From IMG/VR virus record IMGVR_UViG_3300042320_002093, positions 1 to 30,411 of that record: 30,411 nucleotides of DNA. One strand, given 5' to 3'. Positions 4,058 through 24,316 of this stretch are shown one piece after another. This stretch comes from a virus. Position 1 is the first letter of the stretch; each line of letters starts with the position of its first letter. The position numbers and the translations under genes are program-made. The notes beneath the pieces were generated by a model. It was not told where the DNA came from. It searched no databases and saw only the letters and a program-made list of their open reading frames with translations.

Positions 4058-6880
4058 TTGGCAACTTCGATTACAGTCAATGCGGCTAACCTTAACCGGC
4101 CAGGGGTTTTTATCGCCCAGTCGGTGACCGGAGGTCTTCCGCAACCCATTGCGACCCATGCGGTCGGTTATTTGTTCGGTACGACCCCGGCCGAAGAGTA
4201 TTACGGCGACAATGCAGAGGGAATCTACTCGTCCTTCCTGCCTTACACCCCGACTCAAGTCGCGTCGGCACAGGACTTTTTGAATCAGATTGGTGGATCG
4301 GCTCCTACCGGCAGTCGCGGCGCACTCACTACCTACGACTCGGTCAAAGCGTACTTCGACAACGTAGGTGTTAATGGAATTCTTTACTTTACACGAGTAA
4401 CCCCGACGCCCGAGACGGTTATCGACCTGCAACCGAGTAGCGCTGGTGCGGGGTATAACGCCTTCGCGTTGAAGGTGAATGGCCGTTATTTCGGTACGCC
4501 TATTGGTGTTCCGGACGACGATGGTGATGAAATCAAAGTCATTACCACGACCGGTATTGACAAACTGGATAATGCTCGCGATCTGTACGAGTATTTGTCT
4601 AGTGGTAACTCGGACAGCTTCTCCGACTTCTATCGGGTCGAGCAGACTGCGGACGAAGCGCTGTTGGGCAGATTCCGCATTTTCGCCCGGGACAACTCAA
4701 TGTTGCCGGAAATCGATGATTTCTTTGCCTATAACATCAGTGATACGCAATATGCGACTAAGCTTTCTCTGAATACCGCAGATATTATTAAAATTTACAC
4801 CTCGGTGAAAGAGGTTAATTTCCGTTGTAACAGCCGCGACATCGCCACTGGCGAACCTGTTCTTTATGTGGACGGGTCGGCCCTGAGCTTGTTTGTTGCC
4901 GCCGCGAATAGCGACACCCCCGGCACTTATGATATGACCGATGCGGATGACAAGTCCTCCGCGCTTAAGGATTTCCTGGCCGATCAGGGTATTTATGCCA
5001 GTGTACCTAACGGCAAAATCGTTGCCATTAGCAAGGACTTTACGTCCGGTGTAGGGTCAGGTAATAAATGGCCCGATGCCGATGCCGCGTACTGGACTTA
5101 CTCCACCTCAACCAGTAAGTTCACTAAGCTTGTGTCCGGCCTGAATGCTGTTGTTCCGACAGGCGCGATCAGTGCCGGTGTGCGAAGCGGTTATATGCCC
5201 GACTCGGTGCAAGTATTTTATATCCGCGTGGCGGGTGAGAATCGCGCACTGATTGTGAACGGTGCGGATCCGGATGAACTTGCAGAAAATCTCCGCGACG
5301 AGATTATCTCTATTCTGCAGGAGAAAGACCTTGACCAGTATTATAATGTCGAAGCGGTTTCTACCGGCTCTGAGTACTCGACAGGTGTCTACGCACCGAA
5401 CAACGGATATCGAGTAATTAATAATCTCGTCTCGAGTCACGGCTCGCCCTTTATCCGTCCGGATATCAATGATATCGAACTGACGGGGACTGTTGCCGTT
5501 GCCGGTGGCAATGTCACTGGTGTCGGAACTTTGTTCACGCAAGAACTCGGTGTGGGGAGTGTGTTTGTGGCTGGTGGAACTCGGTTCACCGTAACCACGC
5601 TTACTAGCAACACCGCAATGGTGGTGACTCCGGCCACCATAACCGTGACCGCCGGTACCAAAGCCTTTGTTGATAAATCGTTTGCCAACGGCTTCTTCTC
5701 GCACGACTACATTCTTAAGGTAAAAATTACCTCCAAAAATGGGATTGTAAGTCCGGTACTTTCGGGAACTAATCGCCAAGGGCTTATTGACGAGAATGTG
5801 GTCAAGCTGACGTCTATTGATGAGAATGTAGGCTACGCGTCTTACAAAATGTCCGCCCAAGCCAAAGCTCAAGACTTTGTATATGCCATTGAAAAAGGTA
5901 TGGGCGATGAGTACTACGCTCCCGGGTTCTTGTTTGCCCCTGAGGCATATAGAGAGCTTGCGTATGGGGCAGGCTCGGACCTCGCATCCAAGAGCGATGC
6001 GGCTGGCGAACGCCTGAAGGTCACACAGACGCTTGTGGCGGCTGCCGAAGGGCGTTTTGGTACCACCGAAGGTATTACGAACACCCAGCACATGGCGTTG
6101 ATCGATTGCGGTGGGGACATTGAAAACGTGTCCGAAGCGCAAGATGAACTCAGCCTTATTAAGCGTGTCGTGGGCGTTCCCTTCGGGCATGCCGCTTACT
6201 TTGCACCGTACCTTCGTAATACGGACGATCGCTTCGTGCCCGCAAGCGGTTACGTGGCCGGTATCGCCTCCAGCCGTTACATCAACGAGGGATTCCAGCA
6301 GCCCCCTGCCGGTTCTCGTTACCCGCTGCGCGGCGTAAACGATGTCAAATTCAAAATCAGTGCTCAGCAGCAAGAAGTTACTTACGCCTTGGGTCTTAAT
6401 CCAATCCGTTCGCTTCCTAACCGTGGAATTGTGGTCTGGGGTTCTCGAACTCTGTCCAGTTCTCCGCTGTTCCGCTTCGTCAATACCCGCGTAATCCTCA
6501 ACGCGTTGATTGATGTTATGAATCGCAGCTTTGATGACATTCTCTTCGAAAGTATTGACTCTGCCGGTACGGTGTACAGCAAAGTAAGTTCGATTGCGAC
6601 ACAAGTCCTAAACCAGTTCTATAACCAAGGTGCGCTGTTTGGCTCTGTACCCGAGCAAGCTTATCTCGTGGTTTGTGGCGATTCTAATAACTCTCCCGAA
6701 CTTCTCGAGCAGGGTACTGTTCGAATGGATGCTTATGTCGCGACAAGCCCGACCCTTGAACGGCTTGCTATTACGATTGTTCGCACGCCGCTTGGTCAGG
6801 TATCTCTCCTGAGCGATTCGTTCAGCCGGAACGGTGAAAGGTTCGACGCCTTCTTACGGGCGACCAACCTAGGCGTGTAA
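4058..6880 (+). CDS. Tail sheath protein, long form
   Basis: About 940 residues, longer than the roughly 400-700 usual for contractile sheath proteins. The N-terminus (MATSITVNAANLNRPGVFI) is the typical sheath start, with the PGV/Y-type handshake strand. The C-terminal third carries the conserved sheath fold, including GIASSRYINEGFQQPPAG, an RGVNDVKF segment, a WGSRTLSS segment and a closing strand with FSRNGERFDAFLR. A GGAGA at 4045-4049 is 8-9 bases before TTG 4058 but only about 3 before the alternative TTG 4052, so 4058 is preferred. Residues about 473-540 form an inserted Gly/Val/Thr-rich beta module that recurs in the decoration protein. The sheath contracts around the tail tube to drive DNA delivery. 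No tube gene is visible next to it. Confidence 0.88.
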   Translation: MATSITVNAANLNRPGVFIAQSVTGGLPQPIATHAVGYLFGTTPAEEYYGDNAEGIYSSFLPYTPTQVASAQDFLNQIGGSAPTGSRGALTTYDSVKAYFDNVGVNGILYFTRVTPTPETVIDLQPSSAGAGYNAFALKVNGRYFGTPIGVPDDDGDEIKVITTTGIDKLDNARDLYEYLSSGNSDSFSDFYRVEQTADEALLGRFRIFARDNSMLPEIDDFFAYNISDTQYATKLSLNTADIIKIYTSVKEVNFRCNSRDIATGEPVLYVDGSALSLFVAAANSDTPGTYDMTDADDKSSALKDFLADQGIYASVPNGKIVAISKDFTSGVGSGNKWPDADAAYWTYSTSTSKFTKLVSGLNAVVPTGAISAGVRSGYMPDSVQVFYIRVAGENRALIVNGADPDELAENLRDEIISILQEKDLDQYYNVEAVSTGSEYSTGVYAPNNGYRVINNLVSSHGSPFIRPDINDIELTGTVAVAGGNVTGVGTLFTQELGVGSVFVAGGTRFTVTTLTSNTAMVVTPATITVTAGTKAFVDKSFANGFFSHDYILKVKITSKNGIVSPVLSGTNRQGLIDENVVKLTSIDENVGYASYKMSAQAKAQDFVYAIEKGMGDEYYAPGFLFAPEAYRELAYGAGSDLASKSDAAGERLKVTQTLVAAAEGRFGTTEGITNTQHMALIDCGGDIENVSEAQDELSLIKRVVGVPFGHAAYFAPYLRNTDDRFVPASGYVAGIASSRYINEGFQQPPAGSRYPLRGVNDVKFKISAQQQEVTYALGLNPIRSLPNRGIVVWGSRTLSSSPLFRFVNTRVILNALIDVMNRSFDDILFESIDSAGTVYSKVSSIATQVLNQFYNQGALFGSVPEQAYLVVCGDSNNSPELLEQGTVRMDAYVATSPTLERLAITIVRTPLGQVSLLSDSFSRNGERFDAFLRATNLGV

Positions 6881-14382: not shown

Positions 14383-15836
14383 TCAAGAGGGGGAGAATAG
14401 TGATTCTCCCTCATCTTCTAATCTGCATATACATATTTGTTTTTCTTGTTCGCAGGGATTTAAAAAATCCAGTATAAATCTGTAAGGACCAGTACTGTTA
14501 AGTTTTTCGATATAAAATTCAGACATTTTTACAATAAAATCTTCATCACATAAAACGATTTCACTATACCCCGGCCATTTCTTGTCTTTTAATCTTAGAG
14601 GCGGATCTTTTTTCAATAAAATATCGTTTAAGCAAGCTTGCTCGACTAAATAGGCTTCTAACCTGCTACTAAAAAGCCATTGGCTTATTAAATCTCCATA
14701 CTCCGGGTCTTTAGACCTAGTCTCTACTCTGCTGCTGATTCCAATTTTTACTCTCCCCTGATAGTTTGACAAGTAAAAGGCGTAAAAGTATGTCTCTACT
14801 GGTTTATTTTCTATAAGTAAGCTATAAATAGTTTCAAACCCAACATTCCTGCAACAGCTTAAACCTCCCCCGTTTAATATATTGTTAGGGATACCGTAAT
14901 GAATTTCGTCGTGAACAAGACACTTATGTAAAATTTTTGTATAACAATCTATGTATTCCCCTATTCTAATAACTCTTCCAAACTTAGAAATTTTATCGTC
15001 GTAAGTACTCCTCGATACCCTATTTCTTTCACGATATGAATTGCAACAATTCAGTCCTTGGCCTTTAGTAACACACCCAGGAAGGGCTTTATGAAGTTCT
15101 CCGTGCCTCAAGCACAAGTGCAATATTGGTGTGTTTGCGTCTATATACTCTCCTATTCTCCTTACTTTGCCATACTTTTCCAGTTTTTTATCATAAGACT
15201 TTTTGGCCTTGTCTCTTTTACTGATCGAGGATAAACAACACCGTATACTTCCCCCCTTTATTAAAATAGTAGGGACTCCCGGGTGATTTTCCCCGTGGAT
15301 AAGGCATCTGTGTGTTATCTTTGTTGTTCGATTTACATAGTTTTCTACTCTTTTTACCCTGCCGTGAGACTTTAATATTTGATCATATATTTTTTGTTCC
15401 CTTAGTCTTTCCTCTTCGTTAAATATTTTAGTAGGAGTTTTTCTCGAGCTTTCCTCAGCACAGCAGATTAAGACCCCTCCCTTTCTTAATTCGTAGGGTA
15501 GGCCGAAATAATTTTTACTGTGAATCAGGCAAGTATGTAATATTTTTTTTTTTTGTAGTTGCCTTCATAATCTCCTACTCTTTTTACTTTTCCATATTTA
15601 TTTAGCTCTTTATCATATTTGACCTGGGGGTCTCTATTCCCCGGTAGACAGCTCCTACAGCAGGACATACCATGTCCTCTTAATATGTGCCCGGGATTTG
15701 ATAAATGCTCTTCTCCGTGCTTTAAGCACCTGTGCAATATATTAAATTTAGTGCCTCGGAAAGGATCTACTCTAACTGCTTTACCGTGAATTGCTATTCT
15801 TTTGTCGTATTCTTCTTCCGTTAAGGCTTTCCCCAT
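14383..15836 (-). CDS. Repeat-bearing GIY-YIG-type homing endonuclease, frameshifted
   Basis: The gene starts at ATG 15836 with a strong GGGAGG site. The frame breaks at a run of 12 A (minus strand; 15543-15554) and continues in another frame to the stop at 14383, about 480 residues in all. Joining the frames gives five tandem units of about 60-65 residues of the form Y-D-x-x-L-x-K-Y-G-K-V-x-R-[VI], then HxCLxHGExH-x(4)-P and GxG-x-x-CC. Repeat 2 spans the break, so the two frames were one protein. The C-terminus is a degenerate GIY-YIG/T5orf172-like nuclease: YFYAFYLS, VKIGISSRVETR, and YLVEQACL with the putative catalytic Glu. The Cys/His repeats may bind zinc and DNA. A paralogue lies at 29812. 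Confidence 0.75.
14387..14412. terminator. Hairpin between convergent genes
   Basis: Inverted repeat GAGGGGGAGAAT / ATTCTCCCTC around an AGTG loop, located just after the Dps-like stop and over the last codons of the opposing endonuclease. No long U-run follows on either strand, so termination efficiency is uncertain. Confidence 0.5.
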
Positions 15837-23461: not shown

Positions 23462-23782
23462 CTACCAGTCGCAGTCGTAGGGCTTGTCCTGCTTACCGTT
23501 GTCGAGTTCGTTTAACTTATCATTAAAATCGGCTAGTATCTCACTTAGATTATTAAGAAATTCCGGATCGATAGGTGTGTTTACACCTTTGAGAAGTCGC
23601 TCTTTGAACGGGGCGACTCTTCTTTCTTTGAAGAATTCTTCGTAATATTCGAGGGAAGTAAAGTGAAAAGGTCGGAGGTAGTTTTGTGGGAGATGCTCTT
23701 TCTGGAATTCAGTAAGCTTGTCCCAGACTTTTATTCCAGATCTGGTGAGGTTGGCTGGTCGTTGAGGCGATAAATCGGTCAT
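23462..23782 (-). CDS. Hypothetical protein
   Basis: This gene encodes 106 residues, starting MTDLSPQRPANLTRSGIKVW. It is charged and helical, with KVWDKLTEFQKEHLPQNYLR, YYEEFFKERRVAPFKERLL and an acidic C-terminus (DNGKQDKPYDCDW). There is no membrane segment. It lies between the tRNA cluster and the Hli pair. The function is unknown. No convincing ribosome binding site is seen on this strand. Confidence 0.5.
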   Translation of the reverse strand: MTDLSPQRPANLTRSGIKVWDKLTEFQKEHLPQNYLRPFHFTSLEYYEEFFKERRVAPFKERLLKGVNTPIDPEFLNNLSEILADFNDKLNELDNGKQDKPYDCDW

Positions 23783-23797
23783 GATAAAAAGGAGTAA

Positions 23798-23862
23798 AGC
23801 GAGAGACCGGGATCGAACCGGTGACTAGAGCTTGGAAGGCTCGGATGTTACCTTAGCGATAG
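23798..23862 (-). pseudogene. tRNA-Gly(TCC)-like 3' remnant
   Basis: On the minus strand the anticodon arm (GAGC-CTTCCAA-GCTC), variable loop, T arm (ACCGG-TTCGATC-CCGGT) and the 3' acceptor strand CTCTCGC with discriminator T are intact. The expected 5' acceptor strand GCGAGAG and a proper D arm are missing. In their place is a reading frame starting at 23914. The gene should not give a functional tRNA as written. Confidence 0.55.
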
Positions 23863-23914
23863 CGTACGTAGATTTACCTTCCAGTACAAGCTTTTCAAGA
23901 AGAGTTCTATCCAT
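23825..23914 (-). CDS. N-terminal remnant of an HNH-type homing protein fused into the tRNA-Gly remnant
   Basis: 29 codons from ATG 23914: MDRTLLEKLVLEGKSTYAIA, then KVTSEPSKL and a stop. L-x-x-L-V-x-x-G-K-S-T-Y-x-I-A-K is the helix-turn-helix start of many phage and bacterial HNH endonucleases, where it normally continues LGxSxxTVRYWLK. Here the frame runs into the anticodon arm of the tRNA-Gly sequence and stops. It looks like the deletion product of a homing gene that once lay beside or within the tRNA. Confidence 0.45.
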   Translation of the reverse strand: MDRTLLEKLVLEGKSTYAIAKVTSEPSKL

Positions 23915-23930
23915 AAGAATTAAGATTAAC

Positions 23931-24018
23931 GATCACACGTCGAATCGAACGACTCGCTGCTCCTTCCGGCTAGTTGTTAACGCAGATGGGCTTAGAAGGC
24001 CCATGCCAGTAGTGTGAC
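23931..24018 (-). tRNA. tRNA-Arg(TCT)-like, unusual shape
   Basis: The ends pair over 7 bp (GTCACAC / GTGTGAT, one G-U). The anticodon arm TGGGC-CTTCTAA-GCCCA reads TCT. The T arm GTCG-TTCGATT-CGAC has four clear pairs. Only eight bases separate the acceptor from the anticodon stem, too few for a D arm, and 33 bases follow the anticodon stem before the T arm, including CTGC / GCAG. It is either an aberrant tRNA or a decayed or rearranged one. Confidence 0.5.
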
Positions 24019-24025
24019 CAGGTGG

Positions 24026-24044
24026 GAGTTAGCAATACTAACTC
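24026..24044. repeat. 7-bp hairpin between two tRNAs
   Basis: GAGTTAG-CAATA-CTAACTC forms a perfect hairpin between the tRNA-Leu 3' end and the tRNA-Arg-like 5' end. It may be a processing signal for the polycistronic tRNA transcript. Confidence 0.5.
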
Positions 24045-24046
24045 AA

Positions 24047-24128
24047 TCGGTGAGAGGGGCTACGATCCCCTACGCCTTTCGGCAGCGGTTTTTAAGACCA
24101 CCGTGTCTACCTATTCCACCACTCACCG
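24047..24128 (-). tRNA. tRNA-Leu(TAA)
   Basis: The acceptor stem CGGTGAG / CTCACCG is a perfect 7 bp with discriminator A. The D arm contains GTGGTGGAATAGGTAGACAC, as in bacterial leucine tRNAs. The anticodon arm GTGGT-CTTAAAA-ACCGC reads TAA, the class II variable arm is TGCCGAAAGGCG, and the T arm is AGGGG-ATCGTAG-CCCCT. CCA is not encoded. Confidence 0.85.
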
Positions 24129-24133
24129 CTGTT

Positions 24134-24226
24134 TGGTACGCGCCGATGGGGTCGAACCATCTCAAAGCCGCTAATCTGGCGGAAAAGGTTTATAAGGCCT
24201 CTCTGACTACCGAGTCTGACGCGCAT
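24134..24226 (-). tRNA. Class II-like tRNA, anticodon read as TAT
   Basis: The acceptor ATGCGCG / GGCGCGT pairs except for one G-G, followed by discriminator A and an encoded CCA. The D arm is GAC-TCGGTA-GTC, the anticodon loop CTTATAA (TAT, Ile codon AUA) sits on a stem with a C-A mismatch, and the T arm GATGG-TTCGACC-CCATC is perfect. The long variable arm (CCGC / GCGG stem) is normal for Leu, Ser or Tyr but not Ile, so the identity is uncertain. Confidence 0.6.
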
Positions 24227-24228
24227 GA

Positions 24229-24242
24229 TGGGGCAAAAGCCC
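24229..24242. repeat. GGGGC-AAAA-GCCCC hairpin
   Basis: Perfect 5-bp GC stem directly upstream of the first tRNA on the minus strand and 9 bases after the stop of the small basic gene. It could be a weak terminator or a processing site. Confidence 0.5.
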
Positions 24243-24250
24243 CGTAGTGG

Positions 24251-24316
24251 TTAACTGCCCTGACCTCTATAGCGCTTCTTGGCGCTGAGGGTGGTGGGCG
24301 AGGGCTTTTTGGCCAT
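24251..24316 (-). CDS. 21-residue basic peptide at the head of the tRNA cluster
   Basis: ATG 24316 follows an AAGGA, and the frame reads MAKKPSPTTLSAKKRYRGQG, then S and a stop. The GTGCTATACT promoter element ends 23 bases before it, the same spacing as at other genes. It is rich in Lys/Arg/Ser, with a YRG ending reminiscent of short cyanobacterial DUF4278-like peptides. It is very short, so the call rests on the start signals rather than on homology. Confidence 0.4.
   Translation of the reverse strand: MAKKPSPTTLSAKKRYRGQGS

What the first reader, a model, noticed from the sequence alone, without database searches (positions are those of the whole stretch)
23798..23914. tRNA-Gly remnant fused to the start of an HNH-like homing frame
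The 3' half of a tRNA-Gly(TCC) is intact, but the 5' acceptor strand and D arm are replaced by a frame starting MDRTLLEKLVLEGKSTYAIA, which is the usual N-terminus of HNH homing proteins. The frame stops in the anticodon arm. This looks like a frozen intermediate of homing gene insertion and deletion at a tRNA gene, or a deliberate overlap in which tRNA sequence encodes the peptide end.
Basis: partly seen in the sequence, partly recalled or inferred. Interest (0 to 1): 0.58.

Follow-up and report, generated by a model that had tools for sequence, protein, structure and literature searches.

The report
Deleted homing gene fused to tRNA-Gly
In this cyanophage fragment a 504-base deletion has fused the first 21 codons of a selfish DNA-cutting gene to the back three quarters of a glycine tRNA gene, most likely breaking both; a close relative still carries both intact, with the end of the selfish gene written inside the tRNA.

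Summary
On the minus strand, window 23914-23853 is the first 62 nt of an HNH homing-endonuclease gene, and 23853-23798 is tRNA-Gly(UCC) from its D loop to its 3' end. A close relative (L006, IMGVR_UViG_3300043773_002333; 98.6% identical over the 433 nt up to the junction) carries the undeleted form: a 197-codon HNH ORF whose last codons and TAG stop lie inside an intact, cloverleaf-folding tRNA-Gly. The window differs by a 504-nt in-frame deletion with 1 nt of microhomology. So the overlap came first and the deletion then most likely inactivated both genes at once. In an IMG/VR-based survey, 20 of 44 HNH ORFs with a same-strand tRNA downstream end inside that tRNA, 10 of them with the stop codon at tRNA positions 8-10, so the ancestral overlap is a common layout. 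The window remnant itself is ordinary decay. The recurring HNH/tRNA overlap, and a nearby tRNA-like gene with UAU anticodon and a long variable arm, are the more interesting by-products.

The parts
23853..23914 (-). HNH homing-endonuclease gene remnant: first 62 nt (codons 1-20 and 2 nt of codon 21), helix-turn-helix N-terminus
   Evidence: 62 of 62 nt identical to L006:4365-4426, start of a 197-codon HNH ORF
23798..23853 (-). tRNA-Gly(UCC) remnant, D loop to discriminator base; 5' acceptor strand and 5' D-stem strand missing
   Evidence: 55 of 55 nt (23853-23799) identical to the L006 tRNA-Gly; matches tRNA-Gly of Synechococcus phages; Rfam tRNA 24.9 bits, below cut-off
23825..23914 (-). residual 29-codon fusion ORF; the last 8 codons and the stop are tRNA sequence
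   Evidence: the same last 8 residues end the intact ORF of L006
23853..23853 (-). deletion junction: 504 nt present in L006 are absent; 1 nt (A) shared by both sides
23710..24285 (-). L006-type tRNA/HNH cassette; its ends are approximate. Outside it the window resembles all relatives or L005
24047..24128 (-). tRNA-Leu(UAA), intact, upstream neighbour in the cassette
   Evidence: ARAGORN, Rfam 43.5 bits
23462..23782 (-). 106-codon neighbour ORF downstream; anchors synteny with L005, L006, L007

Best explanation
The feature is a double pseudogene left by one in-frame 504-nt deletion. In the ancestor, as still seen in L006, a free-standing HNH homing-endonuclease gene sat directly upstream of tRNA-Gly(UCC) and its reading frame ran about 44 nt into the tRNA before meeting TAG. 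An end joining with 1 nt of microhomology removed HNH codons from 21 on together with nt 1-15 of the tRNA. What is left is a 29-codon frame without the nuclease domain, and a tRNA that cannot form its acceptor or D stem. Shown: both sequence halves, the undeleted relative, the length, frame and microhomology of the deletion, the lost fold. Inferred: that L006 has the ancestral state, that neither product works, and that the joining was non-homologous.
For: L006 has the 197-codon HNH ORF 4365-4958 and tRNA-Gly called at 4914-4986. Deletion 504 nt, microhomology 1 nt, 62 and 55 nt of identity on the two sides. 98.6% identity over the 433 nt before the junction. L006 tRNA-Gly folds as a cloverleaf at -24.6 kcal/mol (z -2.06); the window copy does not (-14.6, z -0.14) and drops from 57.8 to 24.9 bits against Rfam tRNA. 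The HNH nature of the L006 ORF rests on tblastn hits to phage proteins annotated HNH endonuclease and on conserved Cys/His residues in a 7-sequence alignment. No 5' half that could complete the tRNA lies in the window: GCGAGAG occurs 3 times against 4.0 expected, the two other copies are not followed by a D arm, and no 16-mer within 4 mismatches of the L006 5' half was found.
Against: The junction is seen in one contig only: an exact 19-mer ending at it recovered only L006 from viral contigs, and the tool says records very near the window may be left out. Reads were not available, so a chimeric read cannot be excluded, although 1 nt of overlap is too short for an assembler to join on by itself. 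The deletion is in frame (1 in 3 by chance), which would also suit a kept short peptide. Pfam HNH hits of the L006 protein are below their curated cut-offs.
Confidence: 0.9

Rival explanations
1. Abortive homing: the window lineage had an intact tRNA-Gly and no HNH gene. A break in or near the D loop was being repaired from an L006-like donor, but only the first 62 nt of the HNH gene were copied before the end was joined back to the broken tRNA.
For: It gives the same junction. The L006-like tract ends about 110-140 nt past the junction, beyond which the window is L005-like (88-100% in 60-nt bins against 72-83% to L006 between about 23710 and 23470), as expected near a repaired break. HNH and GIY-YIG homing enzymes act in tRNA clusters: SegB cuts within tRNA genes (PMC13096335, passages).
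Against: It needs a cut site in tRNA-Gly and an HNH-free recipient with this tRNA; no such relative was found (L005 and L007 carry other tRNAs and no tRNA-Gly at the site). A plain deletion needs one step.
Confidence: 0.12
2. A functional overlap: the 29-residue helix-turn-helix peptide or a D-armless tRNA is still made and used.
For: The frame is kept open across the junction; the Rfam tRNA model can align the stretch with 5 of 7 acceptor pairs and no D arm.
Against: In-frame by chance is 1 in 3; ARAGORN does not call it; free folding is no better than shuffles; the peptide lacks the nuclease domain and hits only a helix-turn-helix model at E 0.093, far below its cut-off; seen in one contig only.
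Confidence: 0.05
3. Assembly or library artefact: a chimeric read joined two parts of an L006-like genome.
For: One contig, no reads, no second copy of the junction.
Against: Only 1 nt is shared at the junction, so overlap-based mis-joining is unlikely. The sequence past the junction diverges gradually from L006 and becomes L005-like, so the contig is a distinct lineage, not a cut-and-paste of L006.
Confidence: 0.06

Closest known systems
Free-standing homing endonuclease genes in phage tRNA clusters (T4 SegB, between tRNA-Arg and tRNA-Ile)
   Same: A homing gene between phage tRNA genes; related phages carry different tRNA cassettes at one site. SegB cuts inside tRNA genes (PMC13096335, passages seen; PMC2988022 table, passages seen).
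   Different: SegB is GIY-YIG, the relative's gene is HNH; the window copy is only a 21-codon stub; no cutting was tested.
Decay of homing genes by in-frame deletion (phage ICP1 gp174, 228 bp)
   Same: In-frame internal deletion in a phage homing gene (PMC10448857, passage seen).
   Different: ICP1's deletion is attributed to internal repeats; here there is 1 nt of microhomology and the deletion takes a tRNA with it.
HNH ORFs that end inside the next tRNA gene, as annotated in Salmonella phage Kenya-K36 and Klebsiella phage DP
   Same: Same order tRNA - HNH - tRNA with the ORF's 3' end in the next tRNA.
   Different: Their overlap is 10 nt; in L006 it is 44-45 nt; in the window most of the ORF and 15 nt of the tRNA are gone.

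Membership tests
HNH homing endonuclease gene | HNH nuclease domain with its His and Cys residues | tested here: not met
   Absent from the 29-codon window frame. Present in relative L006: C107, C110, H122, H123, C155, C158, H159, H163 invariant in 7 sequences, but Pfam HNH models score below their cut-offs (16.9 against 21.4 bits).
HNH homing endonuclease gene | Common descent with such a gene | tested here: met
   62 of 62 nt identical to the start of the L006 gene; the L006 protein matches 416 phage records at E 1e-3 or better, many annotated HNH endonuclease.
HNH homing endonuclease gene | Site-specific cutting and copying into alleles without it | not testable with these tools
   Needs purified protein and phage crosses.
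tRNA-Gly(UCC) gene | Anticodon arm with UCC, T arm, 3' acceptor strand | tested here: met
   23853-23799 identical to L006 tRNA-Gly; Rfam alignment.
tRNA-Gly(UCC) gene | Complete acceptor stem and D arm | tested here: not met
   nt 1-15 missing; no ARAGORN call, 24.9 bits against a cut-off of 29, no cloverleaf on folding.
Split or trans-spliced tRNA | A separate 5' half that pairs with the 3' half | tested here: not met
   No candidate in the 30411-base window; the rest of the genome is not held.

The most novel reading that the evidence does not exclude
HNH homing genes in phage tRNA clusters have a recurrent 3'-end rule: they end inside the following tRNA gene, most often with tRNA nt 8-10 (U8-A9-R10) as stop codon. 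This ties the two together, so that a deletion reaching the end of the homing gene also damages the tRNA, as in this window, and it may mark the way such genes insert at the 5' end of tRNA genes.
Probability: 0.35. Interest if true: 0.5.

Novelty: new member of a known kind. Interest (0 to 1): 0.3.

Why it matters
It shows how loss of a selfish homing gene can take a phage tRNA with it when the two overlap, one way in which tRNA repertoires of related cyanophages could come to differ. The window alone is a decayed remnant; the wider point is the frequent HNH/tRNA overlap, which is easy to test on many phage genomes.

Tried and rejected
Rejected: a normal tRNA with alternative folding. A split tRNA with its 5' half elsewhere in the window. 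Chance resemblance of the short frame to HNH proteins: tblastn of the 29-residue peptide found nothing in the phage collection even at E 10, so the peptide alone proves nothing; the DNA match to L006 does. An HNH-free relative with intact tRNA-Gly at the same site, the ideal empty-site control, was not found: of the three syntenic relatives only L006 carries tRNA-Gly, and it carries the HNH gene too. S-TIM5, the nearest named phage by DNA polymerase (56%), shows no annotated tRNA in the 7.5 kb before its polymerase gene apart from one at the far edge of the stretch fetched. Three paper searches for reports of such overlaps or remnants gave nothing relevant in titles, abstracts or counts: 'stop codon' + 'within the tRNA' + 'homing endonuclease' + 'phage' 2 papers, neither listed as being about this; 'homing endonuclease' + 'truncated tRNA' + 'phage' 0; 'HNH' + 'overlaps the tRNA' 1, on Bacteroides proteases. 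That is no proof that it is not in print: the library lacks most subscription journals. My recollection that tRNAs with 8/4 acceptor branches have been described (Mukai and others) is from memory, not from a call.

To them I added L016 and three phage loci (L019, L020, L021) that I had picked because a tRNA was annotated under the match, which favours overlap; L022, picked the same way, has no annotated ORF there and was left out of the count, and L017 was left out as the duplicate of L030 (same contig). L025 is the L006 locus itself. The comparison ORFs come from a mechanical ORF list and may include false ones.

Full report
What is there. The window is a 30411-base virus record from a cyanophage-like myovirus: its DNA polymerase is 56% identical to that of cyanophage S-TIM5 over 99% of its length, and it carries a tail sheath and an S-adenosylmethionine decarboxylase. 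On the minus strand, between the decarboxylase side and a 106-codon ORF, lies a small tRNA cassette: a tRNA-like element with UAU anticodon, tRNA-Leu(UAA), an Arg(UCU)-like element, and the feature in question.

The junction. The 62 nt from the ATG at 23914 to 23853 are identical to the start of a 197-codon ORF in L006, and the 55 nt from 23853 to 23799 are identical to the D-loop-to-3'-end part of the tRNA-Gly(UCC) of L006. One base is shared by both runs. Between them L006 has 504 nt more. 504 is divisible by three, and the last eight codons (VTSEPSKL) and the TAG are the same in both ORFs. So the frame of the window is the frame of the full gene with 168 codons missing. In tRNA terms nt 1-15 are gone: the 5' acceptor strand, nt 8-9 and the 5' strand of the D stem.

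The undeleted relative. The L006 ORF (4365-4958) has an N-terminal helix-turn-helix and a C-terminal HNH domain. Its residues C107, C110, H122, H123, C155, C158, H159 and H163 are invariant in an alignment of 7 HNH proteins, and the others end soon after the last of these, whereas the L006 protein runs on for about 34 residues into the tRNA. Pfam's HNH and helix-turn-helix models match it only below their curated cut-offs; tblastn finds it in 416 of 50,697 phage records at E 1e-3 or better, many annotated as HNH endonuclease. Its tRNA-Gly is called by ARAGORN at 4914-4986, scores 57.8 bits against Rfam tRNA and folds alone as a cloverleaf (-24.6 kcal/mol, z -2.06), while the window's remnant folds no better than shuffles (-14.6, z -0.14).

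The other relatives. Of three syntenic IMG/VR relatives found through the downstream ORF, L005 and L007 have different cassettes at this site: L005 has tRNA-Ile, an HNH-type ORF, tRNA-Leu and tRNA-Arg; L007 has tRNA-Met, tRNA-Leu and tRNA-Arg; neither has tRNA-Gly. The window's cassette is L006-like from about 24285 to about 23710, then L005-like, then similar to all. The flanks are about 90-96% identical throughout. So the cassette is exchanged between close relatives, as expected where homing enzymes act; T4 SegB does this in the T4 tRNA region (PMC2988022 and PMC13096335, passages seen). That this HNH protein does so is inference.

How common the ancestral overlap is. I took 80 IMG/VR loci with relatives of the HNH protein, L016, and three phage loci (L019-L021). 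Of 84 loci, 81 remained after removing near-duplicates, 44 have a same-strand tRNA downstream in the piece held, and in 20 of these 44 the ORF ends inside that tRNA; in 10 of the 20 the overlap is exactly 10 nt, the stop codon being tRNA nt 8-10. As a comparison, among ORFs of 80 codons or more ending between 20 nt before and 75 nt into a tRNA in the same loci, 22 of 31 HNH ORFs overlap the tRNA (11 by exactly 10 nt) against 5 of 20 other ORFs (1 by exactly 10 nt), Fisher p 0.0018, after removal of near-duplicates (51 of 54 kept; first version: 23 of 33 against 5 of 21). Part of the exact-10 excess follows from frame alone, since 166 of 300 tRNAs carry a stop triplet at nt 8-10; any ORF that runs into such a tRNA in the right frame stops there. 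What is less trivial is that HNH ORFs run in so often. The sample is biased as told under Tried and rejected.

Reading. An HNH homing gene overlapped tRNA-Gly; one deletion took most of the gene and the front of the tRNA. This explains every base of the feature, including the frame that stops inside the tRNA. It needs no insertion intermediate. A rival, abortive homing in which only 62 nt of the gene were copied into a broken tRNA-Gly, gives the same junction and is not excluded; it needs an HNH-free recipient that I did not find. A library chimera is not excluded without reads, but 1 nt of overlap and the distinct downstream lineage speak against it.

What is not shown. That the peptide and the tRNA are inactive is inferred from missing parts. 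No second copy of the junction was found: the 19-mer before it recovered only L006 in viral contigs. The rest of this virus's genome is not held, so another tRNA-Gly elsewhere is possible.

Noticed in passing
window 24134-24226 (-); L003 about 1500-1592: tRNA-like element with loop CTTATAA (anticodon UAU), a long variable arm and, in the window, CCA following. Missed by ARAGORN; best Rfam match is tRNA-Sec at 29.5 bits, below its cut-off. A copy stands unannotated in Synechococcus phage S-SRM01: of 27 pairs 20 are the same, 1 differs on one side, 6 on both sides, 0 are broken. Sinorhizobium phage Phosso has a 72% similar gene annotated tRNA-Ile(tat). A UAU tRNA with a long variable arm is odd; which amino acid it carries is open.
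   Followed up: partly
window about 23931-24021 (-): Element with loop CTTCTAA (anticodon UCU, Arg) but without a normal D arm and with about 32 nt between anticodon stem and T arm; by eye an 8-bp acceptor and 4-bp T stem. Identical over the compared stretch in L006, no match in the phage collection, not called by ARAGORN or Rfam; folding does not favour the tRNA shape.
   Followed up: partly
L025-L104 (survey loci): HNH ORFs in phage tRNA clusters often end inside the next tRNA gene, most often with the stop codon at tRNA nt 8-10.
   Followed up: partly
window 23286-23167 (-): 39-codon ORF resembling a high-light-inducible protein of cyanophages (recognised by eye from memory, not searched).
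   Followed up: no
window 15525-15836 (-): A further HNH-like gene (PHROG 559, HNH endonuclease, E 3.7e-6). Nearby 14383-15123 (-) has only a weak, sub-threshold T5orf172 match.
   Followed up: no
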